DNA of 64,000 nt from Narthecium ossifragum (Eukaryota > Streptophyta > Magnoliopsida > Dioscoreales > Nartheciaceae): assembly GCA_963920575.1 (NCBI GenBank), contig OY986970.1:22203274-22267273 (forward strand). Direction: 5' to 3'. The notes under the pieces were generated by a model. That model ran no database searches. It was given only the letters and a program-made list of their open reading frames with translations, and was not told the DNA's origin. This document shows positions 1-61,808 of the stretch, in pieces (the stretch's first letter is position 1; each line of letters begins with the position of its first letter). The position numbers and the translations under genes were made by a program.

Positions 1-890
1 CTCAATACATAGAGAAGAGTTTAACAATAAAGTTTAAAACATGAACCATCGTTGGAGAAGAAACCCTAATCCTCGATAGGTCATCCGTCCGCCATGCCCG
101 GGGATTACTCGGCCATGGATGGAGATGTCTTCATCTTCTTCCCTTAGAAAACGTCCAGAAAGAGCCTCCAAAAACTTTCAAGAAGTCCCCCTTGACATAC
201 CCTAACTTTCCTATTTATAGGGTCTAAGAATTAGCAAACTCGGGTTAAGTTTAAACCCGTTATACGCTCCTGGCTGATCTGGCGGTCGACCGTGAGACTT
301 TGACGGTCGACCGTGAGGTGCACAATTTATTTTGACAAGCTGCGATCGATCTTCGCATCGACCGTCGGACGTGTTTTTCTTGACAGAGGCTGACGGTCGA
401 TGCCACGGTCGATGCTACGGTCGATCGTGGCATCTTACGGTCGAACATGAGGATTTTTGAGCTCCACGGTCGATAGTGAGGATTTGACGGTCGACCGTGA
501 GGATTTTTGAGCGCTACGGTCGACCGGGAGATCTGACTGTCGACCGTCACTATTCATTCAGCACTGCGCACTGGTACGAAAAATGTTGTAACTTCCTGTA
601 CGTAACTCGGAATCATGAATCGTAAAATTCTCCAGAAAGTAGACTTCAACATATTTCCAATGGTATATTGCACATCATCTGATTCTTCTTGTAAAGATAC
701 AGTTTAATCCTTGAAGTTGACCCATATAATCTTTTCAGTTTCTTTCAGCTCCAATTTCCTGCATTTTCCAAGCAACTATGTGAAGTAACATATACTATAA
801 AAATAGTGCTAAAGAAGTTGATTAAGTGTGAAGATATAGCAATTTAGATGGTTATACGATTGTTCAGAGTGCACTTTCATGCACTCATCA
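1..890 (-). repeat. A1 3' LTR, truncated by the window edge
   Basis: This stretch is nearly identical to 18690-21008 once the S1 insertion there is removed, so the two are the LTR pair of A1. On the minus strand it begins TGATGAGTGCATGAAAG at 890, next to a purine tract. About 640 bp of the LTR lies beyond the window. It contains a minus-strand TATA box and a palindrome array, listed separately. The open frame through the array is a translation of repeats, not a gene. Confidence 0.9.
213..548 (-). promoter_or_regulatory. A1 LTR promoter: TATA box and upstream ACGGTCGACCGT palindromes
   Basis: On the minus strand a TATA box (TATAAAT, 213-219) is preceded upstream by an array of TCGA-core motifs at 281-548. 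Exact ACGGTCGACCGT palindromes lie at 303-314 and 487-498. Degenerate or half copies lie between them, such as GCGGTCGACCGT at 282 and a run of ACGGTCGATG half-sites near 400-430. The position just upstream of TATA suggests an enhancer in U3; that role is inferred. Confidence 0.65.
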
Positions 891-906
891 CGCCCCCCAA
901 CCAGCT
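891..906 (-). other. A1 polypurine tract
   Basis: The minus strand reads GGTTGGGGGGCG immediately before the LTR start TGATGAG. This is the expected place and composition for the plus-strand DNA primer of an LTR retrotransposon. F (30964-30980) has a closely similar tract. Confidence 0.75.
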
Positions 907-2114
907 TATTGCTAGTCTCTAGGAATTCAAAGCGCATATAATATAATTAAGCACCCCAACGGTTCAAGAATGTAGACATGCATGATTAAGTACTACCTTA
1001 TCAAGTCAATAGTGTTTTATACAGTACAGAGCATAAAAACTTCTTATACTCCTACACATACTACCAACACATGAAATCAACTTCTACACATCAAACATGC
1101 TAATCACCATCCAGAAGAACACATGTGACGTGACAAATAAATGTTACGTACAGAAGCAACTTCTACCCACCATTAGTCCAAACACACTATTATCTTCATG
1201 ACCAATCATCCAACCCTCGCACTTTAAGTACATCATGCTCTTTCTTTTCTTTTTTCCTCTTTTTTTTTCTCAACTATCAGACACTTTCCCTTTTTACGCG
1301 AGCACTCTCCACTTCTTGAGACGCAGAGACCCAGTTACTTAGCAAAACACTTAATAGTTTTTTTTTTCTCCAGTGGTTCTACCTTTTTACTCGAGCTTCC
1401 CGCTTCCTGAGGCAAGAACACCCGGTTACTCAGTAGACCACCTAGTAGTTGTTTAGACACAGCTTTATCAAGCTCCAGAACTTTTTCTTCTTCTTTTTTC
1501 TCCATGCAATACTCAACACTAGCTAATGCTGAAATCATAGTCTAGATTAACAATAGCATGCTCATTCCTCTAGTGAGTATAATCGCCACTGCAAATAAAG
1601 TATTCGTGTGTGAATCACATGATGTTCTACCTTCAGGTTATCACGCATGCAATCAATATATATGCCAATCCATATGAAAGCAACATGTATAATAAGCATA
1701 AAAATTTCAGCTCATGTACAATTTCTAGTAACATATTAAACTCAATAAGGTAGCATGCATGAGATCATGGATGCCAACACCCCCCAACCTGAAATTCACA
1801 CTGTTCTCAATGTGTGCTAGGTATGGCCATAGAATAAAATAGGGTGTGGGTTTCAATTTTAAACAAAATAGATTAGAATTATAAATCGATATAGAAGTGA
1901 GACCACCTGATAGAATAAGCGAATATCTCCTCAAGGTTTCTCATGGTGGCCGAATTTCTCATCTCCAGAATAGTGGTTGAATTCCTCAAGCAAGGCAAAC
2001 GGTGGTCCAACATCCTAAGAAATAAGATAGAAAACAAAAACAAATGAAAACAAAAGTAAACAAACTAAAACAAACTAACCTAATCAAAAAGATAAATAAT
2101 AGATAGTAGAAAGG
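907..2114 (-). other. A1 post-pol non-coding region
   Basis: This 1.2-kb AT-rich stretch lies between the end of pol and the purine tract. Athila elements often carry an env-like reading frame here, but I see none. The minus strand around 1780-1815 carries a 'cattgagaacagtgtgaa' segment and a GT-rich tract resembling the post-pol region of A2. Pyrimidine-rich runs near 1240-1380 account for the short open frames. Confidence 0.6.
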
Positions 2115-4965: not shown

Positions 4966-6625
4966 TGATGAGAATGCATAATGTTATATTTTTATCCCTT
5001 AATACTTAGTCTCCTGTGCTTATTTAGTTCCTAAATACACTCATTATTCTTATATTTTGATTTAGGATGCAATTGAAGTCCTTAATTCGAAAAGAAGCTG
5101 AAAAGAGTACATGGATCAACTTTAAAGATTTATCTGTACCTGCTCATGAAGAACCAGAGGATGTTCCATACATAGTTGGAAAGCTCTTGAAGTCTAAATT
5201 CTGGAGAATTTTACGGTTCGTGATTCCTAGTTTCCTAGAGGAAGTTACGGCAATTTCAGTACCGATGCGCAGTCTGAATGGCAGAAAGGAAAATAAGCTG
5301 GAAGTCCGAGTGATCCGCCGATCGATCGGACCACGCAAAAACGTGACAGAACATGTGTTTTTCAGCCACAACGCATCCGATCGATCCCTCCATCGCTCCT
5401 ATGGGGTCCGATCGATCCGACACCAATGGTCCGATCGATCGAACTCGGAAAAAGTCAAAAATAGCGGATTTTTACTCAACCGATCGATCCAACACTCATA
5501 ATTCGATCGATTGGACTTGGGAATAAAAGGGTGACAGAACATATGCTTTTTAGAGGAACACAGTTCGATCGATCGGACCATCGATCGAACTCGGGAAGAG
5601 CCAGAGACGAAGGATTTTTGCGAAATCGATCGATCCGACTCCCTTAGTCCGATCGATCGGGCTCGGGCGTGAATAGAAGTTGAAGATTTTAATGAGACCG
5701 ATCGATCCAGCATCCAAGGTCCGATCGATCGGACTTTCCCAGTAACAAAAATCAACGATTGTGATCTAATCCGAGGGTGGATACAATTGAGGCTATAAAT
5801 AGGACTCTTTCTAGGGTTTGAGGGGGGATTCTTGGACACTTTTGGCTACTCTTTCTCCTCCTTTATATTTTTTCTAGGTTTTCTTTTCCTTTATGAAATC
5901 TTTTGGAGGATTGTTCCTGATGGCCCTGCGTGGCTAAATCTTGATCCTTGGTCGAGGAAACTGAAACCTCGAAATCAATGAAACTGTGAGATCTAATTTA
6001 TTTTTATTGTTCAGTTTATACATGAGTATTGGATGTTCTTCTGAGATTAAATCTTCATGATTACCTTGTTTAATTACTAGGAGGCCTACTAGTTTATTAT
6101 TCATGGTGATCTACTGCTAGGTTTGATATCAAATTCGGAATTGTTTGATCCCTCTAATCTGCGAAGCAACTAGGATCTAATAATTTACTGCTGATCAGAT
6201 CTTGTTAGATCTTAGAAAGAATATTCAACTAGATTAAATGCAACCGCTTGTGCTTGTGTTGTTTAGCTTCATCGATCTCCCTATTCTTAATGCTGCTACT
6301 AGATTAAATCTACAACGCTTGTCTTAGGTTATTTAGTAGTTAGGGTTGATTAGATCGCTTGTTTCTAATTAACTAAGATTGAGGAGAGATTCGAATTGAA
6401 TTCGGACGGTGAATATTCATGGTATAAATTGATTAATACTTGCATCTATGATCAGTTGTTAGATTATTTCTTTACTGTTTTTCCTCACGTTTAAAACCCC
6501 CCATCTTTGTTCACTTAGCACAAAACTAGGCTAAATACTCTTCGTGGGATCGACTCATACTCGCACTGCTACATTTATTTTAACGAGTACTGGATTTATT
6601 TTTGAGTGCCTGCGACAACACATCA
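4966..6625 (+). repeat. A2 5' LTR
   Basis: This 1660-bp LTR starts TGATGAGAATGCATAATG and ends CACATCA, giving TGATG/CATCA inverted ends. It holds a palindrome array and TATA box (listed next) and is followed by the primer site five bases later. It lacks a 68-bp segment that the 3' LTR has near 15184-15252. The short open frames through the array are repeat translations. Confidence 0.95.
5318..5800 (+). promoter_or_regulatory. A2 LTR promoter: CCGATCGATCGG array and TATA box
   Basis: About twelve copies of a GATCGATC-core motif lie between 5318 and 5732, spaced roughly 20-60 bp apart. Several are perfect 12-mers, CCGATCGATCGG. The last extends to a 16-bp palindrome, GTCCGATCGATCGGAC (5719-5734). 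A TATA box, TATAAAT, follows at 5794-5800, about 60 bp past the last palindrome. The same layout recurs at 14043-14525 in the 3' LTR. I infer a U3 enhancer array; no factor is known to me. Confidence 0.65.
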
Positions 6626-6630
6626 AATTT

Positions 6631-6764: not shown

Positions 6765-9446
6765 ATGAGTATAGCTCGATCTTTTAATCAAGGTGATTTA
6801 CAGTACGATCCAGGGATAGAATGAACTCTACGCAGGTTAAGGAGGGAAGCTCGAATAAATCCTGAGGAGGACGATTTGGCTCTTGACCACGTATTTATCA
6901 GTGATTCTGAATTAGAGGAGGAAGTCATGGCCGGAAATCGGACTTTGAAAGAGCTTGCACCCCCAGATTTGAATCAACAACCCTTATGCATTACATTTCC
7001 TACTTTGGATGTTGCTACTACTTTTGAATTAAAATCTGGACTAATACACCTCTTACCCACTTTTCATGGACTTTCAGGTGAGGATCCTCACAAGCATTTA
7101 AAGGAGCTTCATGTGGTGTGCACAAGTATGAAACCTATGGGGGTGACTGAAGATCAAATCAAATTGAGAGCCTTCCCGTTTTCTTTGAAGGATTCGGCTA
7201 AGGATTGGCTTTATTATTTACCATCTGGGAGTATTACTACATGGAATGAGATGAAGAGGTTGTTTTTAGAGAAGTATTTTCCAGCCTCAAGAGCGGCCAA
7301 CATTAGGAAAGAGATCTGTGGTGTAAGGCAACATAATGGAGAGTCTCTACATGAGTATTGGGAACGTTTCAAGAAATTATGTGCAAGCTGTCCCCATCAT
7401 CAAATTAGTGAGCAATTACTTATTCAATATTTTTATGAGAGCTTACTAACCAATGACAGGAGTATGATTGATGCAGCTAGTGGAGGAGCTTTGGTGGATA
7501 AAACTCCTGAAGCCGCGAGGAACTTGATTGCAAATATGGCAGCTAATTCTCAACAATTTAATACTAGGCTTGATTCTTATTCAAAACATGTTAATGAGGT
7601 AAATGTTTCATCTCTTGAACAACAGATTGCGAGTCTAACTTCTCTTGTTCGTCAAATGGCTGTAGGTAACATGCAAACAGCGAAGGTTTGTGGAATTTGT
7701 TCGGTGGCAGGACATCCAACCGATATGTGCCCAATTCTTCAAGAGGAACCGATTGAGCAAGTGAATGCAGCAGGGAGTTTCCCAGGACCACCGCAAAGGA
7801 AGTATGATCCCTATTCAAACACGTATAATCCGGGATGGAGGGATCACCCAAATCTCAACTATGGGAATCCACAAGTAAATCAGCCTACAACTCAATTTCG
7901 CCTAACTGGACAGCAATATCAACAATATAGATCGCCATACCCCACGAGACAACAACCAAACCCAATTCCGAATTCTGGTATGTCTTTAGAAGATATTGTT
8001 AATTCCCTTGCTACTAGTGCTATGCAATTTCAACAGGATACAAAACAATTTCAACAAGATACAAAACAATTTCAACAAGAGGCAAAGGCCAGTATCCAAG
8101 GTTTGGAACATCAAATGGGGCAGATGGCGTCAGTAATTAGCAAGCTAGAGGCGCAGAATTCGGGAAAATTACCTTCTCAAACGGTAATAAATCCAAGAGA
8201 GAATGCAAGTGCAATCATTTTGAGAAGTGGTAAAGAACTTGAGACTCCAGTAAAGGAAGTTTCTACATCGTCTGTGCAAGGAAAAGAGCAAGACATCGTC
8301 GCGGAAAAAATCTTTCCTGATGACGATGACGTACCTAAACGTAAGTTTCCACCTCTTTCTGATTATAAACCTGTACCTTCTTTTCCTCAGGCTTTGACAG
8401 AATCAAGAAAATATGAGAAGAATTCAGATCTATATGAGACTTTTCGCCGATGCGAGGTAAATATTCCACTCTTAGATGCTCTTAAACAAGTACCTCGTTA
8501 TGCTAAATTCTTGAAAGAATTGTGCACAATTAAGAGAAAGCAGAAACTTAAAGGATGTGAGAAGGTGAAAGTAGGGGAAAATGTTTCTGCAATTCTGCAA
8601 AAAAAAATTCTTACGAAGTGTAGGGATCCAGGTATGTTTACTATCCCATGTACTATTGGTAACACCAAATTTGAGAAAGCCATGTTAGATTTGGGAGCTT
8701 CTATCAATGTCATGCCATATTCTATATATTCTTCTTTAAAACTTGGGCCTTTGAATGAAACTGGTGTTGTGATTCAATTGGCTGACAGATCTAACACCTA
8801 TCCTAAAGGTGTAGTTGAAGATATTCTTGTGCAAGTCAACGATTTAGTTTTCCCTGCTGATTTTTATGTGCTTGATATGGAGAATGGTGATCATAGTACT
8901 CCTATTTTGTTGGGAAGACCTTTCTTGAAGACATCCAAGACTAAGATAGATGTCCATAGTGGCACACTTACCATGGAATTTGATGGTGAAACTGTTAAGT
9001 TTAATATTTATGATGCCATGAAATATCCTGCTGATGATTGTTTAGTGTATTCAATTGATGTGATTGATTATTTATCACAGGAAGTTTTTGAACTTAGTGA
9101 TAAAGATGAATTGGAAGTGGCTATTAGCAAATCTCTTGAGGAAGAAAATGAGGAGCTATCTTTGAGTACTAATTTGCAGGAAACTGTTGCAACACTGAAT
9201 GATTTTTCGATAATTCAGCAATCAGGTAACGATTCTTCTAGTTCATTGCCTGTATCTAATGAGAAATCATTACCTTCTGAATTGCAAGCACCTATTCCAG
9301 ATCTGAAACCTCTTCCTAATCATCTTAAATATGCTTTTCTTAGAGATGAAGGAGTATTACCAGTGATTATCTCCAATAACCTTAGTGCACCACAGGAAGA
9401 AAAACTTGTGCAGGTTCTTAAGAAGCATAAGACAGCTATTGGTTAG
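6765..9446 (+). pseudogene. A2 gag-protease, with in-frame stops
   Basis: The frame starts at ATG 6765, 117 bases after the primer site, and meets TGA at 6822-6824 after 19 codons. It is then open to TAG at 9444-9446, where it runs directly into RT. Gag carries the retrotransposon-gag capsid region, a glutamine-rich stretch with FQQDTKQ repeats (about 8030-8080), and a CX2CX4HX4C zinc knuckle, CGICSVAGHPTDMC (7689-7730). Protease has the motif LDLGAS at 8685-8702, with the catalytic aspartate codon at 8688. The region makes the particle shell and the maturation protease. The first stop would prevent translation from 6765 unless a later start or readthrough is used; ATGs at 6927 and beyond lie inside gag. 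Apart from the two stops, the frame looks undamaged. Confidence 0.88.
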
Positions 9447-13690: not shown

Positions 13691-15418
13691 TGATGAGAAT
13701 GCATAATGTTATATTTTAATCCCTTAATACTTAGTCTCTTGTGCTTATTTAGCTCCTAAATACACTCATTTTTCTTATATTTTGATTTAGGATGCAATTG
13801 AAGTCCTTAAGTCGAAAAGAAGCTGAAAAGAGTGCATGAATCAACTTTAAAGATTTATCTGTACCTGCTCATGAAAAACCAGAGAATGTTCCATACATGG
13901 TTTGAAAGCTCTTGAAGTCTAGATTCTGGAGAATTTTACGGTTCGTGATTCCGAGTTTCCTAGAGGAAGTTACGGCAATTTCAGTACCGATGAGCAGTCT
14001 GAATGGCTGAAAGGAAAATAAGCTGGAAGTCCGAGCGATCCGCCGATCGATCGGACCACACAAAAACGTGACAGAACATGTGTTTTTCAGCCACAACGCA
14101 TCCGATCGATCCCTCCATCGCTCCTATGGGGTCCGATCGATCCGACACCAATGGTCCGATCGATCGGACTCGGAAAAAGTCAAAAACAGCGGATTTTTAC
14201 TCAACCGATCGATCCAACACTCAAAATTCGATCGATCGGACTTGGGAATAAAAGGGTGACAGAACGTATGCTTTTTAGAAGAACACAGTTCGATCGATCG
14301 AACCATCGATCGAACTCGGGAAGAGCCAGAGACGAATGATTTTTACGAAATCGATCGATCCGACTCCCTTAGTCCGATCGATCGGGCTCGGGCGTGAATA
14401 GAAGTTGAAGATTTTAATGAGACCGATCGATCCAGCATCCAAGGTCCGATCGATCGGACTTTCCCAGTAACAAAAATCAACGATTGTGATCTAATCCGAG
14501 GGTGGATACAATTGAGGCTATAAATAGGACTCTTTCTAGGGTTTGAGGGGGGATTCTTGGACACTTTTGGCTACTCTTTCTCCTCCTTTATATTTTTTCT
14601 AGGTTTTATTTTGCTTTATGAAATCTTTTGTAGGATTGTTCTTGATGGCCCTGCGTGGCTAAATCTTGATCCTTGGTCGAGGAAACTGAAACCTCGTAAT
14701 CAATGAAACTGTGAGATCTAATTTATTTTTATTGTTCAGTTTATACATGAGTATTGGATGTTCTTCTGAGATTAAATGTTCATGATTACCTTGTTTAATT
14801 GCTAGGAGGCCTACTAGTTTATTATTCATGGTGATCTACTGCTAGGTTTGATATCAAATCCGGAATTGTTTGATCCCTCTAATTTGCGAAGCAACTAGGA
14901 TCTAATAATTTACTGCTGATCAGATCTTGTTAGATCTTAGAAAGAATATTCAACTAGATTAAATGCAACCGCTTGTGCTTGTGTTGTTTAGCTTCATCGA
15001 TCTCCCTATTCTTAACGCTGCTACTAGATTAAATCTACAGCGCTTGTCTTAGGTTATTTAGTAGTTAGGGTTGATTAGATCGCTTGTTTCTAATTAACTA
15101 AGATTGAGGAGAGATTCGAATTGAATTCGGACGGTGAATATTCATGGTATAAATTGATTAATACTTGCATCTATGATCAGTTGTTGGATTCCGATGGTGG
15201 ATATTGACTCAGACCAAGGTTTGTTCTCTTAATTTAACTCGTTTCTTTGCTTTAGATTATTTCTTTACTGTTTTTCCTAACGTTTAAAACCCCCCATCTT
15301 TGTTCACTTAGCACAAAATTAGGCTAAACACTCTTCGTGGGATCGACTCGTACTCGCACTGCTACATTTATTTTAACGAGTACTGGATTTATTTTTGAGT
15401 GCCTGCGACAGCACATCA
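13691..15418 (+). repeat. A2 3' LTR
   Basis: This 1728-bp copy of the LTR includes the palindrome array at 14043-14457 and a TATA box at 14519-14525. It is followed by the duplication CAGCG. It differs from the 5' copy by scattered substitutions, densest in the first 400 bp, and by the extra 68 bp near 15184-15252. Confidence 0.95.
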
Positions 15419-15423
15419 CAGCG

Positions 15424-17637
15424 GCTTCATGTCCAGCTTGGGCATCTCTACTGTTGATGGTGTTGGTGGTTGTCCTCTTTCTGGCAGTTCTTCAAATTTT
15501 GGATTCCATGGACCTGCAAAAGAACAATGTTCCAAATTTTTTCACGTACCATCAACATCAACACTTTCATCCAAATCTAATTCAAGAGAATTAATTTCAG
15601 TTTTAGCAAACTCCTCTTCAGGGAACAAATCAATCTGGTAAGTCTGCTGGGATTCATCATCCTCATTAGGTTGCTTAGCAACATTAAAAACATTAATTTC
15701 TAAAGTCATATTCCCAAAAGTTAACTTCATTAAACCATTCCTGCAATTAATTATAGCATTAGCAGTAACAAGAAACGGTCTTCCTAAAATAATAGGAATT
15801 CTAGAATCAGCAGTTACTACAGCTTGAGTATCCAAGACTAAGAAATCAACAGGGTAATAAAATTTATCTATTTGAACAAGCACATCTTCAACTACTCCTC
15901 GTGGAGTCTTCGTGGATCTATCTGCCAATTGCAAAATCACAGATGCTGAAGCAGTGCACTAACCTGCTCTGTTAAAAATGCAGTTTTCTTTACATGATGT
16001 CGTCTCTTCATAGTACATAAATCTTTAATCACTTTAGCATATGTAGTAATTTGCTTAATAACATCCAAAAGAGGAAGGTTTACCCTAACCTGCCGAAGAT
16101 GCTCGAAAATCTCGCTGTTGGGCTCCATAGTAAATTTAGTGGATTTCAATGACTGAGGGAATGGGACACATACCTTAAAGTCACTTGGCATAGGGCCATC
16201 TGGATGATCGGCCTCTGCATGGTTCTCCTTAATCTGGTCCTCTCCTTCAATAACAATAGGAGGTTCTGTGGGCTCTTGTGAAGGGCTTTTTGTTGTTTTT
16301 CCGCTTCTTGTAGTTACAGCGTTCATCTCCTTCACATTATTTTGCTCAGCACTAGATACCTGCGTTTGTTGAGGTTGAGCTGGAAACTTCCCTCGTTCAT
16401 GGACTCTCAAAGAATTGATCAGCTTCGTGATCTGGCTCTTAATCTCTTGAACATCCTCCTTTCTTTCCTTGGATTCCTGCACAATCATAGATTTCAGTTC
16501 CTGTAAACTGTCATTAAATGTAGGCCTAGGAAAACCATATGTATTATAAGGAGGGTTAGAAAAAGGCTTATTAGGTAGCGGTTGATGATGCTCGTTGCTT
16601 TGTGGAGCATTCGACTTCCAGCTGAAGTTCGGATGCTCTCGCCATCCTGGATTATACGTTTCCGAGTAAGGAGTGTACGGCCTCCTGAATCCGCCTACAT
16701 CGTTGCAATGCTCATCGTACACACCTCTCATCTCAGCATAGGTGGGGCAATCATCAATCTGGTGGTCCACACTTTGACAGATTGCACACGGGCCAGCCGG
16801 CCTTGTAGATTCATTATATGGAGAGGTCCGGGCTGCCATCATATCTTTGGTCTTTAATAGCTCCAGCTCCCTTGTTAGACTCTCCACTTTAGCCTTGAAT
16901 GCATCCTCCCCCCGCAGCTGATAAATTCCTCCACCTGGTTGCTGCGGTGGTGGTCTGGCCCTGTTTGTACATTTTGTTGCATTCGGTCCAGTCCATGTAT
17001 GAGCTTTCTCAGCAAGCTCAGTCAAGTATTCAATTGCTGCATCATGATCTTTTTGCAAAAATTCACCATTGCACATCATCTCAACAAATTGACGTTCTCT
17101 AACAGTTAAACCATCATAGAAATAACTAACAAGACGCCAACTTTCATATCCATGATGAGGACATAAATTCAACATGTCTTTAAATCGTTCCCACGCCTGA
17201 TACAAAGTTTCACTATCCTTTTGTGTGAAGATCGAAATCTGTCTCTTAAGTGCATTGGTTTTGTGCTGTGGGAATTACTTGTTGAAAAATATCTGTGTCA
17301 TTTCAGCCCAAGATCCTATAGATCATGGCCTCAAGGAATATAACCAACTCTTCGCTCTATCCTTCAGCGAGAAAGGAAAGAACTTAAGTCGGATCATATG
17401 TAATGCACCTGGTTGGCCATGGAAGGTCGCTACTACTTCCTCAAACTCCCTAATATGCACATATGGATTTTCATTTTCCAACCCATGAAAGGTAGGAAGC
17501 AACTGAATCATGCCAGGTTTAAAGTCAACATGTGCTGCATTAGGTGGAAACATGATGCATGAAGGTGTAGCAGTGCGTGTGGGATGCAAATATTCTTGCA
17601 AAGTCCTAGGAGGTTGTTCTTCCTCGTGCTCAGCCAT
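15424..17637 (-). pseudogene. A1 gag and protease remnant
   Basis: On the minus strand gag starts near 17637. It has the capsid region (IQLLPTFHGL ... FPFSLKDRAKSWL), is frameshifted near 17325, then is open from about 17205 to 15937. It has a zinc knuckle, CAICQSVDHQIDDC, followed by a conserved block NLPLLDVIKQ. At about 15940 the frame jumps to the post-active-site part of protease (ILQLADRSTKTPRGVVEDVLVQ ... IILGRPFL). The aspartate-bearing motif that should lie between is missing. Protease residues continue to about 15542, then a linker runs to the A2 insertion at 15423. The order of domains and similarity to A2 make the assignment firm; the product is non-functional. Confidence 0.85.
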
Positions 17638-18985: not shown

Positions 18986-20431
18986 TGATGAGTGCATGAA
19001 AGTGCACTCTGAATAGTCTTATAACCATCTCAATTGCTAGATTATTATCCTTAATCAACATCTTTATTACTATTTTTATATCTATATGTTGCTTCACATA
19101 GTTATGTGGAAAATGCAGGAAAAAGGAGGAAAGAACCTGAAAAGATTACATGGATCAACTTGAAAGATTAAACTGTACCTGCTCATGAAGAACCAGATAA
19201 TGTACCATATATGATTAGAAAGCTCTTGAAGTCTAGATTCTGGAGAATTTTACGGTTCGTGATTTCGAGTTTTCTACGGAAAGTTACAATATTTTTCGTA
19301 ACAGTGCGCAGGCTGAATGAATAGTGACGGTCGACCGTCGCGCTCGAAAATTCCCCCGAACGACCGTCGCATCGACCGTCACATGCAAAACTTCCCACGG
19401 TCGACTGTGGCATCATCCGTGGCATCGACCGTCTGCCTCTGTTAAAGAAAATTCTTCTCAGGGTCGATGCGAAGATCGACCGTCGCTCTTCCGAATTATT
19501 TTGTACAATTGACGGTCGACCGTGAGATCTCACGGTCGACCGCCAGATCAGCAGGGATCGTATAATGAGCCGGATCTAACCCGAGTTTAGGCCTATAAAT
19601 AGGATACTTAGGGTTATCAAAGGGGATCTTTTGGAGGACTTTTCTGGAGCATCTGGTGGAGAGGAAGCCGTGTTAGGGTTTTGTTTTCTTCGTCTTTCTT
19701 TTCTTTATTTTTCTTTGAGCACTTTTCTCGTCTTCATGATGAACATGAGTGGATAGTTTCTTCTCTAAGGTTTCGATGTAGCCCTAACTGAATCATTCTA
19801 TGTTATTGGATCATGATTATTTAATCAGTTTATTTTCCTTATTTCATTCATCATTATAACTGAGATCTTAAATACCTTTATCTGGCCAATAAAAGTATTA
19901 TAGATTGTTTTATGCGGAATTGGGTGAGGGTTCATTCCCTAATCTTGCAGGATCTATGAATGAATGAGTTTATGTCGAGGCCGGGTTCAAGCTAAGAGTA
20001 TTCTTGGTTCATAATTGTTCTTCAGAGCTTAATGGATTCTTGGTTAACACTTAGTTATGGGTTCATTAGCTAGGGTTAATTGAGGGTACTTGGTGAAGAC
20101 CATGGCCGAACGGATCATCATACCGGAAGAACGAGCCCTTGGAATTAAACTGAAATCTTGATTGATTCAATGCATAGAATGAGGATGTTATGGTGAAATC
20201 GGAGCCTTAGTATTCATCCATCATATTTCTATCGATTTCTTATTTCGTTATTAGATTATCTATTCTCAATACTTCATATCTCTTATTTTCCCTTCCTTAT
20301 TTTCTTTATTTTCTGTTCTTTAATGTTTCACTCTAATAATCTTTACAAATCTCTGTGGGTACGATACTCGTCTTGCTGTTATACTGATTGCACCGATTCG
20401 TATACTTGTGAGATATAAATTTTATTCATCA
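18986..20431 (+). mobile_element. Solo LTR S1, Athila-like, inserted in A1 LTR
   Basis: A 1446-bp sequence starting TGATGAGTGCATGAAAG and ending TTCATCA is bounded by GAGAC (18981-18985) and GAAAC (20432-20436), a 5-bp duplication with one mismatch. The empty site is visible in the left A1 LTR at 294-298. There is no internal domain, so it is a solo LTR left by LTR-LTR recombination. It belongs to the A1 family or a close relative: its first 40 bases and a block near 19150-19290 match the A1 LTR reverse complement. It lies in the opposite orientation. It has its own palindromes (exact at 19327-19338 and 19512-19523) and TATA box (19594-19600). Confidence 0.9.
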
Positions 20432-20440
20432 GAAACCTTG

Positions 20441-20665
20441 ACGGTCGACCGTAAGGTGCATAATTTATTTTGACAAGCTGCGGTCGATCTTCGCATCGAC
20501 CGTTGGAAGTGTTCTTCTTGACAGAGGCTGATGGTCGATGCCACGGTCGATGCTACGGTCGACCGTGGCATCTTACGGTCGATCGTGAGGACTTTTGAGC
20601 TCCACGGTCGACCGTGAGGATTTGACGATCGACCATGAGGTTTTTTGAGCGCGACGGTCGACCGT
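20441..20665 (-). promoter_or_regulatory. ACGGTCGACCGT palindrome array of the A1 5' LTR
   Basis: Four exact 12-mers occur at 20441-20452, 20555-20566, 20604-20615 and 20654-20665, with half-sites between. This copy is less decayed than the one in the left LTR, where only two of these sites remain exact. In the uninterrupted LTR the array lies just upstream of TATA. Confidence 0.6.
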
Positions 20666-49507: not shown

Positions 49508-49512
49508 GTACA

Positions 49513-52635: not shown

Positions 52636-52638
52636 AGT

Positions 52639-54505
52639 TGTCACACCCTGACCCAGAAAACCCATCCAGTACGAGGCATGAGGGTTCCTATCACTATTCA
52701 TCTCCAATTGGCGCGATACGAAGCGGAAAAGACAGATAATTTAAATAATTTATATTCCAGAGGTGAAACTGATATTCAATTCATATATATACATCAAGTT
52801 GTACTGATACAAGATTCTGTAACAAACTCCTCAAAGGGAAAGATTTATACAATAATCCAAAATTCCTCAAAGGATGTTTATAATGTACAAACTATCAAAA
52901 AGTACAACATTTTATCCTCCAGCAACCTCAAGCACCTCTGGACGTACCCGCACGACCAAAGGCCTATCCCGCTGGCTCCACAGAAGAAGAACTGGCGCTT
53001 GCACTTGCAAACGCAGCCCGGGTAGGAGTGAGCGATAAGTTCAGGAGAGTTCTACTCTACGGCACACAGAAAGGAGGAAAACAACAACAATGTTGTCTCC
53101 CCGCTCAAGCCTAAGGAATACCAAGGGGTCCCACAACCCCTGTCGATTCCCCAAGGGATCCTACTCTTCTCAACCGACCACGCTGGGAACATCAACCAAC
53201 ACGCTGGGAGGAAAAGAACCAGAACCAGTAGGATCACCGTTACCCAGCAGGAAACCACTGCCTGGGGACCATGTAAGGGACATCGACAACCGTCCTTAAG
53301 ACTTAGCCTTGGGAAGACAACACGACCTCTAAACCTCGAAACATTGATCAGAGTCTACTATCGCAAATCCTCAATAACAAGAGATTACATTATACAATCA
53401 TACCCTAATCCTGGCTACCCAGCCACGGTCCTAAGGCTAGATCCGAGCTACCCGACAGCCTTGGATCGGCGACCAAACCCATCGCCCGCCTAACCTCATA
53501 TGCCTCTAATGAATACAATGCATGAACCAATTCAAACATCTACCCTAGATGTCTCTAAATGCCACACATCAGTAATAGGTTCAACAGATATACAATAGCC
53601 CTCGGCACTCGCCGGAAAGAGGCTAAGGTTCCACAATTCCACATTAGCTAGCACTCATAGCTAGCTAATGGCTAAGCACTCAGCTAAGCATTTAATTACC
53701 AACCAAACATGTATTTAAATGCAAGCCAAACCATCAATTTACTCAAAAGGGATATACACGCGATTTAATCTCAATATCAGTAGAAATCCCTTGAAAACTC
53801 CATGAAAACAACATGCAAACTTCCCAACAAGTTTAGATATCAATCACGAATGAAAGCCATCAAAGAAAAGCCAGAAAACAATGCTCAAGGTCCCACGATC
53901 GATCCGACGGTCGACGGTCGACGGTCGACGGTGAGGCCACGGTCGATGTCACGGTCGATGCAACGGTCGACCGTGAGACCAAAACAAGGAAAGCTATAAG
54001 GATGATGATCGATCCACACATCGACCCTGGGAAGCCCAAAACCAACCAGCGCTAGACGGTCGATCCGACGGTCGACCGTGAAGCAAAATGGAAAAAGGAG
54101 AAGATCCCGCGGTCGATCCAAGCATCGACCCTGGGAGACTAAAAACCACACAGAGCCTGACGGTCGATGCGACGGTCAATCCGACGGTCGACCGTCTGGC
54201 CCAGAAAGAGCGTATCAACGCTTGATGGTCGATCCACCGATCGACCGTTGAGCCTTAGGCACAGTTCATCAGAACAGTGTCGGAAATCCAATTTCTTGGA
54301 TTTCAAGGATCAAATCAAGTTGGAAGTTGATGAAACTTTGCAAGCATGTGTAATTAACGATGGGGAATCCAATGGTATGAAGAGATCACATTTATATGGT
54401 TAAATCTCCTATCTAGATCAAAACGGCGAAAACCGACAAAACGACGATAATACGGAAACCAGCCATCAAAATACGGAAAATACAAGGTAGGAATATATTA
54501 AAGCA
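52639..54505 (-). repeat. T2 5' LTR, truncated, with palindrome array
   Basis: It starts TGTCACACCCTGACCC and aligns with 44290-46130. Similarity stops near 54505, so the promoter end is lost. The array at 53893-54245 has three exact ACGGTCGACCGT copies (53963, 54068, 54184). It also has a tandem GACGGTC-type expansion at 53905-53932 that the 3' LTR lacks. Confidence 0.85.
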
Positions 54506-54661: not shown

Positions 54662-55713
54662 AGTACTGAAGGTCCGGAGGGGGGGGGGGTGAATTGGACC
54701 TTTTTGAGGAAATACATTCAATGAAAACCAAGATAGAAAGCTAGAAGACTAGTATGTTGTATGCTTGTTTAGTTATGAAAGCAATGGATAAAGCAATTAA
54801 TGAAGGAAGAGTTAGGAGACTTGCACCAGATTTATAGTGGTTCGGCAAACCTTGCCTACGTCCACTACACTCAAGGTCCTCCTTGAGGTTCCACTACTTG
54901 TAAATCCCTTTACAAGTATTCCCACCGAGCTTCCGGGTGCTTGGCAACCTTACAAATCCTTCAACAACTGCTGGAGCTCCCCCTCAAGCTCTCGGGTGCT
55001 TGAGAACCTTACAAATCACTCCAAGCTCTCTCTTGGATATTTCTCTCAAACTCTACTTCACATTTGAAGTAGTTTTACAAAGGTTAAATCTCTCAAAATA
55101 AGACTAAAACTTGTTACAATGTAAACTAATATCTCCCTTAGTATTACCGCAAGTTTACTGCATCTTCTCATATATACTTGAGTTTTAGGGCCTAAAAAAA
55201 TAGCTTTCAACGACTATTTTCTGTTTCTGCAACGGTTAGTTTCTGGGCTCACGGTCGAGCATTGCATCGTCTGTGGCATCATCCGCCAGGCTTTTCTTGA
55301 GCCACGGTCGATCCACCTATCGACCGTCAAGAGTCACGGTCGACCGTAGCATTGACCGTGACATCATCCGTCAGGCACTGTCAAGAAAAAAGCTTCCCAC
55401 GGTCGATGCACGGATCGACCGTCGCTTCTTCACTTTTCTTCATAAATGCTCCACGGTCGATCCACAGATCGACCGTCGCATCCCCGTCGCATCCCACGGA
55501 TGCATCCATGCATCATCCATCAACTCCACGGATGCATCTATCCGTCATCCGTCAATCCCACGGACGCATCCATGCATCATCTGTCAATCCAATAATAGCT
55601 CAAATATGAAAGTTAAAGCTTGTTATCAACATATATTTTATCACATATATATTTTAACATTTAGGAACATATTGGCATCATCAAAACATAATCAAAACGT
55701 CATTAGGGCTAAC

Positions 55714-56233
55714 TGTAACGCCCCGGCCCTCCACTGGGCCCCGGCTCTGGCCCGTTGGCTCCCGGTCCGACCAGGATCTGCCCAGCGGCGCTGCTCCCCG
55801 ACACAATATTGTTCGCTTTTGGCTCACCGCAGAAATCTGGAAAAACTTCCCAGTACGTCACCCATCGTGTGACTACTCCAGGTCGAGCACGCTTAATGTT
55901 AGACTTTTCTGATGGATCACTGTCATCACGGCTTTAAAACACGTTGTGCCTATTAAGGGCTTAATATATACTTATATCGAACCCCGAACCATACCCAGGC
56001 ATTATGGGATTGCTTACCCGGCTACCCGACTCATCCCCGCCCTGCAGGCGAAGGCATCTTGTCCCCCCGTAGACCCAGCAGGCCTCACAATCCACCTTGA
56101 GGGCCCAGCGTCCTCGCTGGCACAATTTTCGACTGAGAACCGGCTCTAATACCATACTGTAACGCCCCCGCCCTCCACTGGGCCCCGACCCGCGGGCTCC
56201 CGGTCCGACCAGGATCGGCCCAGCGGCGTTACA
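55714..56233 (-). mobile_element. TRIM with 5S rRNA-like segment (Cassandra-like)
   Basis: A 520-bp element runs TGTAACGCCCC...GGCGTTACA between perfect duplications CTAAC (55709-55713 and 56234-56238). Related terminal repeats lie at 55714-55803 (90 bp) and 56158-56233 (76 bp). On the minus strand, beside the right repeat, TGGTATTAGAGCCGG (56140-56154) is a one-change match to the iMet primer site. It has no coding capacity. Size, short repeats, primer site and 5-bp duplication define a TRIM. A 5S-like segment (next entry) points to Cassandra, but Cassandra carries 5S inside both LTRs; here only one copy exists, between the repeats. Confidence 0.78.
55844..55945 (-). pseudogene. 5S rRNA-like segment within the TRIM
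   Basis: The minus strand reads CCATCAGAA, then TTAAGCGTGCTCGACC, AGTAGT and GATGGGTGACGTACTGGGAA. These match, in order and spacing, the second half of plant 5S rRNA with its internal promoter (A-box region and C-box). The first half, toward 55945, is much less alike. It is a mobile-element derivative, not a 5S gene: the ends do not match and no tandem copies exist. The promoter boxes may still recruit Pol III; that is unproven. Confidence 0.75.
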
Positions 56234-56239
56234 CTAACA

Positions 56240-57514
56240 ATCTCCCCCTTTTTTATGATGACAATCTATTTATATGTGATGATAAAATATCTATTACTCC
56301 CCTAAAATCTATGCATCCATTTCTTTGATAAAAGGTGTTCTAAGATGAATACTAAGGATGCATACTAGTCATATTATATAGAAAAGTTCTATCCATGATA
56401 TTATGACAAGATAATTTATATTTTAGTATAATTTCTTCTTTAACTAATATCATGATTGGTAGCAATAGATTACATCACAACTTTTTCTCCACCTATTGCA
56501 TCATCAAAAAATGGGCAAGGGGCAAGAGAAAAAGGTTGATCACTAATGGAGGCTTGATATCTAATCAATGAAAATATTCATGATACTAAAGACAGTAGGG
56601 GATATATATATATATATATATTTTTTAAAAATGTTTAAATCCATTTAAATAAAGTACTCCCCAAACATAAGTTCTTTTATCTCCCCCAATTACAAATTAC
56701 TTAAAACAATTTTTTAAAAGGAGATCCGACGAAAAATTTAAAACGAATGTGACACAACGAGTGGCGGTCAACCTTCAAAGGTTCATGGTCGACCGTCGAG
56801 TATGATTTTAGCATTTCATGAAATATTGCGTAGTCACGGTCGAACCAAGTGAACTCACGGTCGACCGTCACTTCCAGAAAATGAATTTTGAAATTTAATT
56901 TAAAATGATTTTTGAATCAAAATCTCATGAAAATTTACATACACATGTAATTTAATATTTTCATCTAAACCAAGTCAATTTTTCTAGAAATTCATGCATT
57001 TATTCAAAATTATGGCGCATGAGTGTATGTGTGTGAAGATGAATTTTTAAGAACTCACATACCTCTTTTCTTTTACATGAAATCAATTTAAGAATTGTAG
57101 TAAATGATGCATACAAGATGCAATTTCTCATAGAAGATGATTAAACATCATTTCAAAATAGTAAGCATTATAAAACAAAATATGACCATATGACCTCTTT
57201 TAAAATCAATCAAGATACAAGATTTAAGTCAAGATTAATTCTTTTCAAGGATTCATTTTTAAATCAAAAATACTTCATAAGGAAAATAAATCATAGAATA
57301 AAGTTCACTATAACTATTTTGAAATACCAAATGAAAAATGAGGAACAAGACTTCATACCATTGGAGGGATCATTTGATGACTATTTAGATTACCTCTTTT
57401 TCTTGGAAACATTTTCTTGTCCTCACCATATGCCTTTACCATCCACCATCAAGATATCTCCATTTACTTTTGAATTTGTCTTGACAAATGGATCTCAAGC
57501 ATCCCTAACACAAA
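56240..57514 (-). other. SIRE-like element: purine tract and non-coding interior
   Basis: The minus strand has the purine tract AAAAAAGGGGGAGAT (56240-56255) beside the LTR. The rest is AT-rich, with an (AT)n run at about 56602-56621. It holds a second TCGA cluster at 56763-56873, including exact ACGGTCGACCGT at 56857-56868. The 111-codon plus-strand frame at 57190-57525 is AT-rich and resembles no protein I know. Pol would be expected here but is absent. Confidence 0.6.
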
Positions 57515-59191
57515 TCATATCTTGATTTTTGGTACCCAAATTTTTTTGGGTCCACTATCGTTAGTTCTTGAAATATTGATATAAGATGAATGCTTTGGAA
57601 TCCAAAACGTGTTAGCACTTGCATTCTTCATTAAATAGCAATTAGGAGCAATATGTCCAATTTTACAACAATAGTGACAAGTAAGTGCATTTGCAAATCT
57701 AGGAGGATGAGATGATGCTTTAACAAAGCTTGTCTTTTTAAAATTATTCATCTTCCTAGGGTTATAGCCAATTCCATTCTTGTTCAATGAACTACGTTGG
57801 CTATCAAGGATCTCATTAAGTATGATCTTACTTTTCATAAACATAGAAAGAGTAATTTTCAAATCATTATTTTCAAGAGTGAGATCCCTTTTTTATTCTC
57901 TCAAAACGATGATTTCCTTTTGCAAGTTACTTGAGTTATTTTGTAAAATGTCATGCTCACACTTGCAAATTTCAAGTTCTTTTCTAAGTGAGGCATGATC
58001 ATCACTAGATGTCTTACTCATAATGCATTTGTTTTCATTTTCCAAAAAGTCAATCTTATGCATGGCATCTAGTTTTTATTGTTCTAGCTTTTTCAAGTCC
58101 TTACATGAAGCATAATATTTCATTTTAAGGAACTTGAAATCCTTAGCTAAGGAATGATAAGCTTCAAAAAGTTCATCAAAAGCTAGCTCATCATTTACCT
58201 AATTATCTTCTTCCTCGTCCCCGATGGCCATTAGACAAATATTTGCTTTTTCTTGTTCTTTTTCATCAGAGGAGGAATCCTTATCGCTTTCACTCCAAGT
58301 TGCCATCATGCCTCTCTTTTTCTTGAAACCCTTCTTGGTTGACTTCTTGAGTTGAGGGCAATCGGACTTGTAGTGACCGGGCTTTCTACACTCATAGCAT
58401 ATAATATTATTTGAATTATATGAGGTAGAGTTTGATTTTTCACCTTCGGAGATTTTCTTCTTGAAAATTTTCTTTCCTCCTTGGCGATTGAGCATCCTTT
58501 TGATTTTTCTTGTAATTGATGCCAATTCCTCATCGCTCGAATCTGATTCTTCATCCCTTGAACTTGATGAATCTTGGTATGATGACTTGAATGCAACCGA
58601 TTTTTCTTTCTTCTCTCCTTTAGTGTTGTTCTTCTTCAAGCTCATCTCATACATCATGAGTGAACCCATGAGGTCATCAAGTGATAGCTTGGAAAGGTCT
58701 TTGGCTTCTTCAATCGCCGTCACCTTGGGATCCCATGCTCTAGGTAGACACCTAAGTATCTTTCTTACAATTTCATCATTAGCATAAGATTTGCCAAGAG
58801 ATTGAAGCACATTCAAAATATTATTAAAGCGTGTAAACATTTCACTAAAAAACTCATTTTCCTTCATGCTAAGCAATTCATAGTCATGAACAATCATACT
58901 TATCCTAGTCTCCTTAATACGGTTGGTTCCCTCATATGTAATTTCAAGTTTCTCCCATATTTCCTTGGCTGATTTACAACTTGAATTTCTACTAAATTCA
59001 TTGGGACTCAATGCATAAATAAGAAAGCATTTGGCTTTAGCATTGATTTCCAATTTCCTTATGTCGGATGGAGTGTACTCACTCTTAAGCTTGGGTACAT
59101 CCCTTCCTTCATGAGTTTTAGTAGGAATGAAAGGTCCTTCCTCAATGGTAAGCCAAGCTTCATAGTCTAAGGATTGGATAAAAATTTCCAT
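57515..59191 (-). pseudogene. SIRE-like gag and start of pol
   Basis: The minus-strand frame from ATG 59191 is open for 330 codons. It has the UBN2-type copia gag region (AKEIWEKLEITYEGTN, RFNNILNVLQSLGK, ILRCLPRAWDPKVTAI), a Ser/Glu-rich stretch, a zinc knuckle CYECRKPGHYKSDC (about 58358-58399) and NICLMA, ending at 58199. Downstream, 57862-57515 holds a second knuckle-like motif CHYCCKIGHIAPNC and KKIWVPK, known from the pol start of SIRE elements. The stretch 58198-57863 between them is frame-shifted coiled-coil sequence. The coding region then stops. It was probably made from an LTR-driven minus-strand RNA. Confidence 0.8.
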
Positions 59192-59315
59192 CCTAGTCTT
59201 TCAATAATTGTAATTCTCTCCATCAAAGTAAGGAGGCCTATTGATAGATTGTCCTTATTGGTTTTCCATCTATACCTAGGATCCTCTAGGGTCGTTAAAC
59301 CTCGAATTTAGAGAC

Positions 59316-59330: not shown

Positions 59331-59332
59331 AT

Positions 59333-60291
59333 TGAAGGTCCAAGGAGGGGGGGGGGGGGGTGAATTGGACCTTTTTACGGAAATACAATAGATGAAAATC
59401 AAGATAGAAAACTAGAAGACTAGTATGCTTGTTTAGTTATGAAAGCAATGGATAAAGCAATTAATGAAGGAAGAGTTAGGAGACTTGCACTAGATTTATA
59501 GTGGTTCGGCAAACCTTGCCTACGTCCACTTCACTGAAGGTCCTCCTTGAGGTTCCACTACTTGTAAATCCCCTTACAAGTATTCCCACCAAGCTTCCGG
59601 GTGCTTGGCAACCTTACAAATCCTCCAACAACTGCTGAAGCTCACCCTCAAGCTTTCGGGTGCTTGAGAACCTTACAAATCACTCCAAGCTCTCTCTTGG
59701 ATACTTCTCTCAAAGTCTACTTCACACTTGAAGTAGTTTTACAAAGGTTAAAGCTCTCAAAAGAAGACTAAAACTTGTTACATTGTAAACTAATATCTCC
59801 CTTAGTCTTACCCAAAGTTTGCTGCATCTTCTCATATATACTTGAGCTTTAGAGCCTCAAAAAATAGCTTCCAACGGCTATTTTCTGTTTCTGCAATGGC
59901 TCTTTAACGGCTAGTTTCTGGGCTCATGGTCGACCGTCGCATCATCCTTGAAATCGTCGCCAGGCTTTTCTTGCGCCACGGTCGATCCACCTATCGACCG
60001 TCAAGCGTCACGGTCGACCGTCCCATTGACCGTGACATCGTCCGTCAGGCTCTGTCAAGAAAAAAGCTTCCCATGGTCGATCCACGGATCGACCGTCGCA
60101 TCCCACGGATGCATCCATGCATCATCCGTCAACTCCACATATGCAACCATGCATCATCCGTCAATCCAACAATAGCTCAAATATGAAAGTTAAAGCTTGT
60201 TATCAACATATATTTTATCACATATATATTTTAACATTTAGGAACATATTGGCATCATCAAAACATAATCAAAACGTCATTAGAGTTAATA
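59333..60291 (-). repeat. SIRE-like 5' LTR
   Basis: This 959-bp LTR starts TGAAGGTCC and ends TTAATA (terminal CA changed to TA). It has a 14-base G run near 59347. The TATA box is at 59835-59840 (minus). TCGA motifs lie upstream at 59925-60105, with exact ACGGTCGACCGT at 60010-60021. It matches the 3' LTR throughout, except that the latter has one more array segment near 55440-55480. Confidence 0.85.
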
Positions 60292-60296
60292 AATAC

Positions 60297-61808
60297 ATAT
60301 AAAATGTCCGACCCCACATATGAGCCTAAGACCTATAATGCTATGTACACATTAGTTGGAAAATAGTAGAGCAAGCACAAGCAACTAAATGCACAATTAA
60401 CATAAAATTGGTTGAAATCGGTAAACGTTGGTAAACAATTTCATAATACAATCCTCGGTATATTCCTACGTTAAACCTGTCAAAAATCCGATTAAAATAT
60501 TATAATAGTCACTAGCTATCATCGGGAAAGCAACGCAAGAAGATCGGGTCGAAAAGAAATCGAAAACATCGAAATCGGACCAAGACTTGTTAATTGCAAA
60601 CAAGAGATCGATCTTTACATCCAGTGAAGATCGATCTTATTCCGTACAAGCCAACCACCACCAAAACAAGAGATCGATCTTCGACAAAGGGGTCCTCTGT
60701 CTGGAACATCAGAGATCGATCTTCATGCACAGAAGATCGATCCTCTTCAGACGAGACAGAGCACTAACACACAAAAGATCGATCTCCTCCCTAGAGAAGA
60801 TCGATCCTTCATAGTCGGCGGCCTACTTGGCAACAAGAAGATTGATCTTCAGGCCTGTGAAGATCGATCCTTCTTCCGCCGACAGCATATATGAATAGTG
60901 TTGCGAATCAAATTTCTTGGATTCGATCCACCAAAACTCGTTGGAATAAAACGAAACTAGGAGGGGATATGCAGTTTGAGGTGAGGAATCTATTGGTACT
61001 AAGAAATTCAACTTTAGATCATCAAATCTCCGGATCTAAGACAAATTGGCTGAAACCCGACAAAACTGATGAAAACACGAATTTACTAGATTAGATCTAT
61101 AAACCGTGATGAAATACATTCAAACTTTAATTGAAGGTAGATTACGTGGTAGGGGGTTCACTCATGCAATAAATTCCAAATTCAGATCCTGAAATTTCAA
61201 ATCTGAGCCGATCTGGTTCAGAAATCAATAAAAATACGGAAAACGTTTGAAAGAATACGAAACCAACTAGATAGCAATCTCCCTTATATACAATAGAACT
61301 AGGATACGGGATATGAAAACATTCCAACAAGCAAAACTACACCAAAACATAAAATAAATAATTCTAGGGTTACCAATTCGCAAGAATTCGGTTGAAATGC
61401 CTACATATATAGACAAGCAGGCGATCTACTTGACCCTTCACTCCAATCGCCGCGAATCTGAGCCGAAATCCCATAGCCCAAGCTCCAGCCGGCAGCCAAG
61501 GGGAGAGAGGTCAGAAAAAGAGAAAGAAGGGAAGAGAGAGAAAAGAGAAGGGTATTTATAGAGATATGAAACGATCTCGGTCATCCGATTCGATCTTTCC
61601 CGATCGAGTTCCGATCTTTCGATCGAAAGCACCCTTAAGATTCTAATCAAGCGCATACATCAATCCAAGGCAGTGTGCAATTTTACCAAATTTCTCCTGG
61701 GGTTCAAAATGTCAATACAATCGCTCGATCGCACCCGACGCGGAACTAAACCAACGGGAAAATGGCCGGCGACCTACGCGGCCGAGCCAGGTTAGAGGAA
61801 CGGGTTTA
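60297..61808 (-). repeat. Third Tekay-like LTR, T3 (partial)
   Basis: The right part (61620-61806) matches the T2 and T1 LTR ends: 'gattctaatcaa', 'gcggaactaaaccaacgggaaaatggcc', 'gccgagccaggtta'. The middle follows the T2 LTR order (gcgaatcaaatttcttggattc, near 60903). A minus-strand TATA box is at 61553-61560 with TCGA motifs just upstream (61568-61630). The LTR start is missing and no internal domain is present, so it is a broken or solo LTR. Its palindromes are of a different type (next entry). Confidence 0.7.
60604..60871 (-). repeat. AAGATCGATCTT palindrome array in T3
   Basis: About nine copies of an AGATCGATCT-type motif occur within 270 bp. Exact forms are at 60605-60614 and, as the 12-mer AAGATCGATCTT, at 60627-60638. 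One copy near 60840 is changed to AGATTGATCT. The place in the LTR corresponds to the ACGGTCGACCGT array of T2, 680-950 bp downstream of TATA. Confidence 0.72.

What the first reader, a model, noticed from the sequence alone, without database searches (positions are those of the whole stretch)
213..60871. One palindrome type, TCGA-core, arrayed in LTRs of unrelated retrotransposon lineages
Exact ACGGTCGACCGT occurs at 303, 487, 19327, 19512, 20441, 20555, 20604, 20654, 45561, 53963, 54068, 54184, 55336, 56857 and 60010 (starts). These fall in Athila-like (A1, S1), Tekay-like (T2) and SIRE-like copia elements. A2 and T3 carry arrays of a different palindrome with the same TCGA centre. A random 12-mer is expected about 0.004 times in 64 kb. 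The copies are not all independent, but the three lineages diverged very long ago and their LTRs are otherwise dissimilar. Either a short enhancer-like cassette has been exchanged between elements, or the same host factor has driven convergence. This is the best candidate in the window for an undescribed shared regulatory system.
Basis: partly seen in the sequence, partly recalled or inferred. Interest (0 to 1): 0.88.

Follow-up and report, generated by a model that had tools for sequence, protein, structure and literature searches.

The report
Palindrome arrays in unrelated retrotransposon promoters
In this plant genome several kinds of unrelated jumping genes carry, near their own start sites, rows of short mirror-symmetric DNA words built on the same four-letter centre, and some kinds share a piece of these rows, which looks like switches for the same sort of DNA-binding proteins.

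Summary
In detail: all 15 ACGGTCGACCGT copies are where stated. The genome (379 Mb, host unnamed) holds 12,621, against 10 of the word reversed. It is one flavour of a larger set: palindromes with an RTCGAY centre and other flanks (CCGATCGATCGG 8,166 vs 8; GGATCGATCC 49,382 vs 260). They form arrays in Ty3 (Athila-like, Tekay-like) and Ty1 (SIRE-like, L024) LTRs, upstream of the TATA box where one could be assigned. A ~95-bp cassette, spacers included, is shared by Athila-like, SIRE-like and L024 LTRs (weaker link to Tekay-like) and inverted in SIRE. Another flavour fills the same LTR slot without clear spacer homology, and flank letters tend to change in complementary pairs. Sites are better conserved than spacers; spacings of two flavours follow the helix (except the commonest 12-bp one). 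I favour sites for dimeric DNA-binding activators, spread by cassette exchange and flank switching. No binder is known and nothing was tested by experiment; functionless repeat turnover is not excluded.

The parts
283..548 (-). Array of ACGGTCGA sites in LTR A1 (1-891, Athila-like, minus sense); array edge 63 bp from TATAAA
5318..5731 (+). CGATCGATCG-flavour array in A2 5' LTR (about 4966-6625); 62 bp from TATAAA; LTR followed by TGGCGCCGTTGCCGGGGA, PBS-like by recall
14043..14457 (+). Same array in A2 3' LTR (about 13691-15418), 97% to the 5' LTR
19327..19544 (+). Array in solo LTR S1 (18987-20432); 49 bp from TATAAA
20441..20665 (-). Array in second A1-type LTR copy (18688-18986 + 20433-21012), split by S1
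5091..5280 (+). 190-bp block conserved in the Athila-like LTRs (also 555-745, 13816-14005, 19130-19319, 20673-20863), bordering the array on the side away from TATA
   Evidence: 76-85% identity
45550..45880 (-). ACGGTCGA array in T2 3' LTR (44292 to beyond 46136)
53896..54247 (-). ACGGTCGA array in T2 5' LTR (52641-54505); TTTAAATA 176 bp downstream (TATA role uncertain)
55250..55590 (-). Array in SIRE-like 3' LTR (54667-55712); 73 bp from TATATA
59928..60169 (-). Array in SIRE-like 5' LTR (59333-60289); 87 bp from TATATA
56764..56871 (-). Small site cluster in the internal region of the SIRE-like element; the unassigned array L020 4307-4551 adjoins sequence homologous to 56861-56959 (82%)
55319..55427 (.). 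Copy of the ~95-bp shared cassette in SIRE LTR, antiparallel (relative to promoter) to that in Athila LTRs
20475..20583 (.). Copy of the ~95-bp shared cassette in A1-type LTR; further copies at 337-444, 19396-19491, 59993-60095, diverged ones at 54090-54200 and 63376-63463
60605..60866 (-). AGATCGATCT-flavour array in T3 (61523-61803 is 72% alike to the outer part of the T2 LTR; LTR status not shown by a pair)

Best explanation
The arrays are promoter-proximal enhancers (UAS) of LTR retrotransposons. Each palindrome is a DNA site for a symmetric (dimeric) DNA-binding protein that reads an RTCGAY centre plus 2-4 flanking bases per half; different flank 'flavours' would be read by related but distinct proteins. 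Sites are repeated, often in helical phase, so that several dimers can bind together near the TATA box and drive LTR transcription. Elements obtain arrays in two ways: by exchange of a ready-made ~95-bp cassette across Ty1/Ty3 lineages (mechanism inferred: template switching or ectopic gene conversion), and by local duplication followed by paired changes of both halves. Shown: genome-wide excess, arrays, promoter position where a TATA was found, spacer homology, paired flank changes, conservation of sites, phasing for two flavours. Inferred: protein binding, dimer, activation, host origin of the factor.
For: Counts against reversed words: 12,621 vs 10, 8,166 vs 8, 49,382 vs 260. In 10 loci at fixed positions (50 kb), 8 RTCGAY arrays, 0 in 20 shuffles; 11 other palindromic hexamer classes give 0 or 1 each. 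In the window 12, the others 0-4. Position: array edge 49-63 bp upstream of TATAAA in five Athila-like LTRs (four elements, three flavours), 73-88 bp in three SIRE-like LTRs, 107 bp in L024 (L034 placed by 74% match to the A2 LTR). Spacers homologous with sites masked: Athila-SIRE antiparallel, Athila-L024 parallel, SIRE-L024 antiparallel, SIRE-Tekay antiparallel and weaker (alignment). Flank pairs complementary: GATCGATC -1/+1 91/156 vs 48.5 shuffled, -2/+2 78/156 vs 41.1; one homologous LTR site with core kept and both flanks switched. Same palindrome within an array: 168/195 pairs vs 1205/3991 between arrays. Site cells in 15 Tekay-like LTR segments match the majority in 0.960 (ascertained 12-mers masked) vs 0.864 outside the array; CpG 0.958 vs 0.846. 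Phasing: GGATCGATCC best period 10.25 bp, R=0.78, n=49; without the 20-22 class 10.45, R=0.74, n=26; ACGG flavour without the 12-bp class 10.60, R=0.65, n=215; 0 of 1000 jittered sets as high. L010 LTR pair (98.3%) carries arrays in both LTRs; L024 pair (99.1% over 459 bp) reaches the first array site.
Against: No binding, expression or methylation data; no candidate protein tested. Half-symmetric words are common: AGATCGATCC 30,884 on both strands together; the AGATCGATCT count needed for the genome-wide pairing test did not complete. The commonest ACGG-flavour spacing is 12 bp, off the helical period, and pooled GATCGATC spacings do not peak near 10.5 (9.50; excluding <=25: 11.25, R=0.42). 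Single-core ACGGTCGACCGT shows no extra pairing beyond 12 bp (21/49 vs 21.5; at -2/+2 fewer than shuffled, 13/49 vs 22.5). Conserved words could partly reflect gene conversion. No TATA was found for T3 (minus) or L028 arrays. 5 of 48 arrays have no LTR assignment; one of these adjoins SIRE internal sequence. 20 of the 30 loci hold the 12-mer by choice and come from the first 6.6 Mb of one contig. Copies are related, so shuffles and jitter overstate significance. One genome only.
Confidence: 0.6

Rival explanations
1. No regulatory role: the arrays are unstable short repeats that spread by slippage, gene conversion and RT template switching, and palindromes are kept or made by quasi-palindrome correction.
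For: Arrays are repeat-rich; words are homogeneous within arrays; cassettes are shared between elements; near-palindromes abound.
Against: Of 12 palindromic hexamer classes only RTCGAY arrays strongly (8 vs 0-1 in fixed-position loci; 12 vs 0-4 in the window); similar promoter position in unrelated lineages; 8-bp sites conserved while adjoining spacers are not, even at CpG; helical phasing of two flavours.
Confidence: 0.22
2. Targets of an element-encoded anti-silencing protein, as in the VANC/VANDAL system: motif arrays recruit a factor that removes methylation, with motif and factor co-evolving.
For: Dense arrays in non-coding regions and family-specific motif flavours resemble the passages on VANC targets.
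Against: One flavour is shared by Ty1 and Ty3 elements. A gene for such a protein was not searched for.
Confidence: 0.1
3. RNA-level function: palindromes in the 3' U3 of the genomic RNA pair within or between RNAs (hairpins, dimerisation).
For: Two-core units have 10-bp arms with paired flanks (52/78 vs 36.4).
Against: Many sites are loop-free palindromes that cannot form hairpins (56 of 126 converging ACGG pairs, and the GATCGATC words); no G-U tolerance in the sense strand (GU 19 vs AC 12; two-core arms GU 3 vs AC 14); helical phasing is a DNA property.
Confidence: 0.05
4. One later-inserted small mobile repeat (MITE- or SINE-like) landed in each LTR.
For: A ~95-bp cassette is shared and inverted in SIRE.
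Against: Shared part grades into lineage-specific array; A2 array without clear homology; similar promoter slot. Empty sites and free copies were not searched (genome search mostly unavailable).
Confidence: 0.03

Closest known systems
Heat-responsive elements in ONSEN/COPIA78, COPIA37, TERESTRA LTRs (PMC5059998, passages seen)
   Same: Clusters of short repeated motifs in LTRs, bound in ONSEN by a host factor (HSFA2), gained repeatedly and independently in copia families.
   Different: Here both Ty1 and Ty3 lineages, a different motif with unknown binder, several flavours, and a cassette shared between superfamilies.
VANC target motifs of Arabidopsis VANDAL transposons (PMC5735166, PMC10398659, passages seen)
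   Same: Short motif arrays in non-coding regions that evolve quickly and differ between related families.
   Different: The word palindrom- does not occur in the main text of either paper; motifs are read by the element's own protein; here one flavour spans unrelated elements.
Tnt1/Tto1-type U3 enhancer repeats (recalled, nothing read)
   Same: Repeated boxes upstream of the LTR TATA acting as stress enhancers.
   Different: Family-specific as far as I recall; no cross-superfamily sharing known to me.
BED-finger factors on CG-centred palindromes such as DREF on TATCGATA (recalled; search listing only)
   Same: Symmetric site with an ATCGAT centre.
   Different: Animal example; no link to this genome tested.

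Membership tests
LTR enhancer hijacking a host transcription factor (ONSEN/Tnt1 kind) | Repeated sites in U3 upstream of the LTR TATA | tested here: met
   for Athila-like, SIRE-like and L024 LTRs; uncertain for Tekay-like, not found for T3 (minus) and L028
LTR enhancer hijacking a host transcription factor (ONSEN/Tnt1 kind) | Sites bound by an identified host factor | not testable with these tools
   no binding data
LTR enhancer hijacking a host transcription factor (ONSEN/Tnt1 kind) | Sites needed for LTR transcription | not testable with these tools
   no expression data
LTR enhancer hijacking a host transcription factor (ONSEN/Tnt1 kind) | Sites more conserved than surroundings among family members | tested here: met
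   1372/1429 vs 7451/8623 cells over 15 aligned LTR segments of one family
VANC/VANDAL anti-silencing target | Dense short-motif arrays in non-coding regions, differing between related families | tested here: met
VANC/VANDAL anti-silencing target | Binder encoded by the same element family | not tested
   sharing across Ty1 and Ty3 argues against it
RNA dimerisation/hairpin palindromes | Pairing with tolerance of G-U in the transcript sense | tested here: not met
   GU 22 vs AC 26 in total, small sample
Inserted small mobile repeat | Clear boundaries and target duplication in each LTR | tested here: inconclusive
   one search shows a core cassette; empty sites not searched

The most novel reading that the evidence does not exclude
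A palindromic address code shared by the retrotransposons of one genome: a family of related dimeric factors, each reading an RTCGAY-centred palindrome with its own flanking letters, drives many LTRs; elements of different superfamilies trade ready-made arrays and switch address by paired changes of both half-sites, in an arms race with, or in exploitation of, a diversifying host protein family.
Probability: 0.3. Interest if true: 0.9.

Novelty: new variant of a known kind. Interest (0 to 1): 0.76.

Why it matters
LTR enhancers that copy host sites are known one family at a time. Here one symmetric site type is found in gypsy and copia LTRs and tens of thousands of times in the genome, in several flavours, with evidence that an enhancer-like cassette crossed between superfamilies. 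If a binder exists, it would be a control point for many retrotransposons of a plant, and the flavours would make co-evolution of motif and factor directly testable.

Tried and rejected
Motif words in the literature: searches (74 papers, 30 listed; 55 papers, 12 listed) gave titles unrelated to this subject; none was opened. One search found no paper with its five terms; searches listed nothing whose title or abstract start describes such arrays. This covers only the held open-access library and the listed rows. RNA hairpin or dimer idea: tested, not supported. Naming the host: one protein search (best 120 of 7947 listed) gave best named full-length hits of 79% identity (Citrus) and about 75% (Malus and others), so the host is not identified. 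A genome-wide table of flank pairs stayed incomplete: four words were counted; GATCGATC, AGATCGATCT, AAGATCGATCTT, TGATCGATCA and CACGGTCGACCGTC did not complete. Free-standing cassettes, empty sites and host transcription-factor families were not searched. GATA-type, type-B ARR, MYB and BED proteins as binders were considered from recall only; none was tested.
Full report
Observation. All 15 copies of ACGGTCGACCGT lie where stated, and 100 dinucleotide shuffles gave none. The window also holds CCGATCGATCGG x7 in A2 and AGATCGATCT x5 in T3. Genome-wide (G000, 379.4 Mb, 150 contigs, host unnamed), the 12-mer occurs 12,621 times and its reversed form, also a palindrome of the same composition, 10 times. 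CCGATCGATCGG occurs 8,166 times against 8 and GGATCGATCC 49,382 times against 260.

Where the sites are. Self-comparison and sequence reading give: LTR A1 (1-891, minus), a second A1-type LTR (18688-18986 + 20433-21012) interrupted by solo LTR S1 (18987-20432, plus), A2 with LTRs at about 4966-6625 and 13691-15418, T2 with LTRs from 44292 and at 52641-54505, and a SIRE-like copia element with LTRs 54667-55712 and 59333-60289. Pfam hits place A2 and T2 in Ty3 and the gag at 58199-59200 in Ty1. Site 56857 is in the internal region of the SIRE-like element, not in an LTR. A further type, L024, is Ty1 (RVT_2, rve and gag_pre-integrs in pieces) with an LTR pair 99.1% alike over the 459 bp in view.

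Arrays, not single words. In 10 loci of 5 kb at positions I fixed beforehand there are 8 arrays of at least four RTCGAY sites, none in 20 shuffles, and 0 or 1 for each of 11 other palindromic hexamer classes; in the window the figures are 12 against 0-4. Of 48 arrays in loci L005-L034, 43 lie within 700 bp of array-masked LTR reference sequence, and 8 of 8 in the fixed-position loci. The test is loose: references from L010, L024 and L028 match themselves, the F6 reference (L028) is assigned only by homology (each of the 8 fixed-position arrays also matches another reference), and in nested regions a neighbour can match. Five arrays have no assignment; one, L020 4307-4551, adjoins sequence 82% alike to 56861-56959, so it corresponds to the internal SIRE cluster. 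Twenty of the 30 loci were chosen from places listed for the 12-mer on contig C1; not all listed places were fetched.

Promoter position. In the promoter sense the array edge lies 63 bp (A1), 49 bp (S1), 62 and 61 bp (the two A2 LTRs) and 61 bp (L034 3878-4090, whose promoter side is 74% alike to the A2 LTR over 100 bp) from TATAAA, across three flavours; 73, 87 and 88 bp in SIRE-like LTRs; 107 bp in L024. The Tekay-like distance of 176 bp rests on a TTTAAATA word and is uncertain. No TATA-like word was found within 260 bp for T3 (minus sense) or one L028 array in either sense, and the A1-type copy is cut off from its TATA by S1.

Flavours. Around GATCGATC, flanking bases are complementary more often than shuffled at -1/+1 (91/156 vs 48.5), -2/+2 (78/156 vs 41.1), -4 (67/156 vs 47.9) and more weakly at -3 (54/156 vs 40.6); controls CATGCATG, TGCATGCA and GAATTC show nothing, AGCT a slight excess (353/1187 vs 303.6). 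Distinct flank pairs were counted once, but relatedness of elements was not removed. Single-core ACGGTCGACCGT shows no pairing beyond its 12 bases (21/49 vs 21.5). Within an array the same palindrome recurs (168/195 pairs) more than between arrays (1205/3991). In an alignment of three related LTR pieces, one site keeps GATCGATC while both flanks differ in a paired way (GA..TC in L026 against CG..CG in L028 and L034); other sites there are asymmetric. Half-symmetric AGATCGATCC counts 15,504 + 15,380, so many sites are imperfect.

Constraint. In 15 aligned Tekay-like LTR segments, site cells match the majority in 1372/1429 after masking the exact 12-mers that brought the loci in, against 7451/8623 outside the array and 3056/3635 in spacers; CpG cells 684/714 against 939/1110 elsewhere. 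CpG is expected to decay faster in methylated repeats (general knowledge), so conservation there is notable. Gene conversion among copies is not excluded.

Geometry. Half-sites ACGGTCGA converge at 4 bp (56/126) or 16 bp (62/126) and repeat directly at 12 bp (59/119) within 60 bp. GGATCGATCC spacings from the first 82 listed places have a best period of 10.25 bp (R=0.78, n=49), 10.45 without the 20-22 class (R=0.74, n=26); ACGG-flavour spacings without the 12-bp class 10.60 (R=0.65, n=215). With the 12-bp class they peak at 9.50 (R=0.70, n=393). Pooled GATCGATC spacings peak at 9.50 (R=0.61, n=127), or 11.25 excluding up to 25 bp (R=0.42, n=60). None of 1000 jittered sets reached these values in any case, but copies are not independent. 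Mismatches show no RNA-type G-U tolerance.

Reading. The account I favour is an enhancer array for symmetric DNA-binding proteins, spread by cassette exchange and diversified by paired flank changes. It would work like the HSF-driven elements of ONSEN-type LTRs (PMC5059998, passages), which were gained repeatedly, but the motif, its spread over both superfamilies and the flavours are not described in anything I saw (searches; open-access library, listed rows only). It also resembles VANC target arrays (PMC5735166, PMC10398659, passages), though those are read by the element's own protein. PMC6911290 (passages) reports only a weak preference of insertions for palindromes. What is missing is any experiment and the binding protein.

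Noticed in passing
window 7299-7405 (-), 17147-17253 (+), 39351-39457 (-): Three of three Rfam snoR71 (RF00097) matches lie antisense to retrotransposon gag frames, so this Rfam family may in part describe gag sequence rather than a snoRNA.
   Followed up: no
window 18980-18990 and 20430-20440: Solo LTR S1 sits inside a related LTR in opposite orientation, directly beside a CGGTCGACCG site, with a 5-bp flank repeat differing at one base (gagac/gaaac).
   Followed up: partly
window 55712-56242: About 530-bp insertion in the SIRE-like 3' LTR with end repeats (55712-55790 / 56156-56228, 86%), perhaps a short non-autonomous LTR element.
   Followed up: no
L024 4978-5073: Five head-to-tail 21-bp spaced copies of ACGGTCGACCGT in a young copia LTR.
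   Followed up: partly
L010 1916-2049 and 9064-9179: A second array of CGATCGATAG words in the same LTR that carries an ACGGTCGA array: two flavours in one LTR pair 98.3% alike.
   Followed up: partly
window 63306-63494: Cluster of six TCGA sites outside the given coordinates, with ACCGTCGACGGT at 63490 and a further diverged cassette copy at 63376-63463; its element was not identified.
   Followed up: partly
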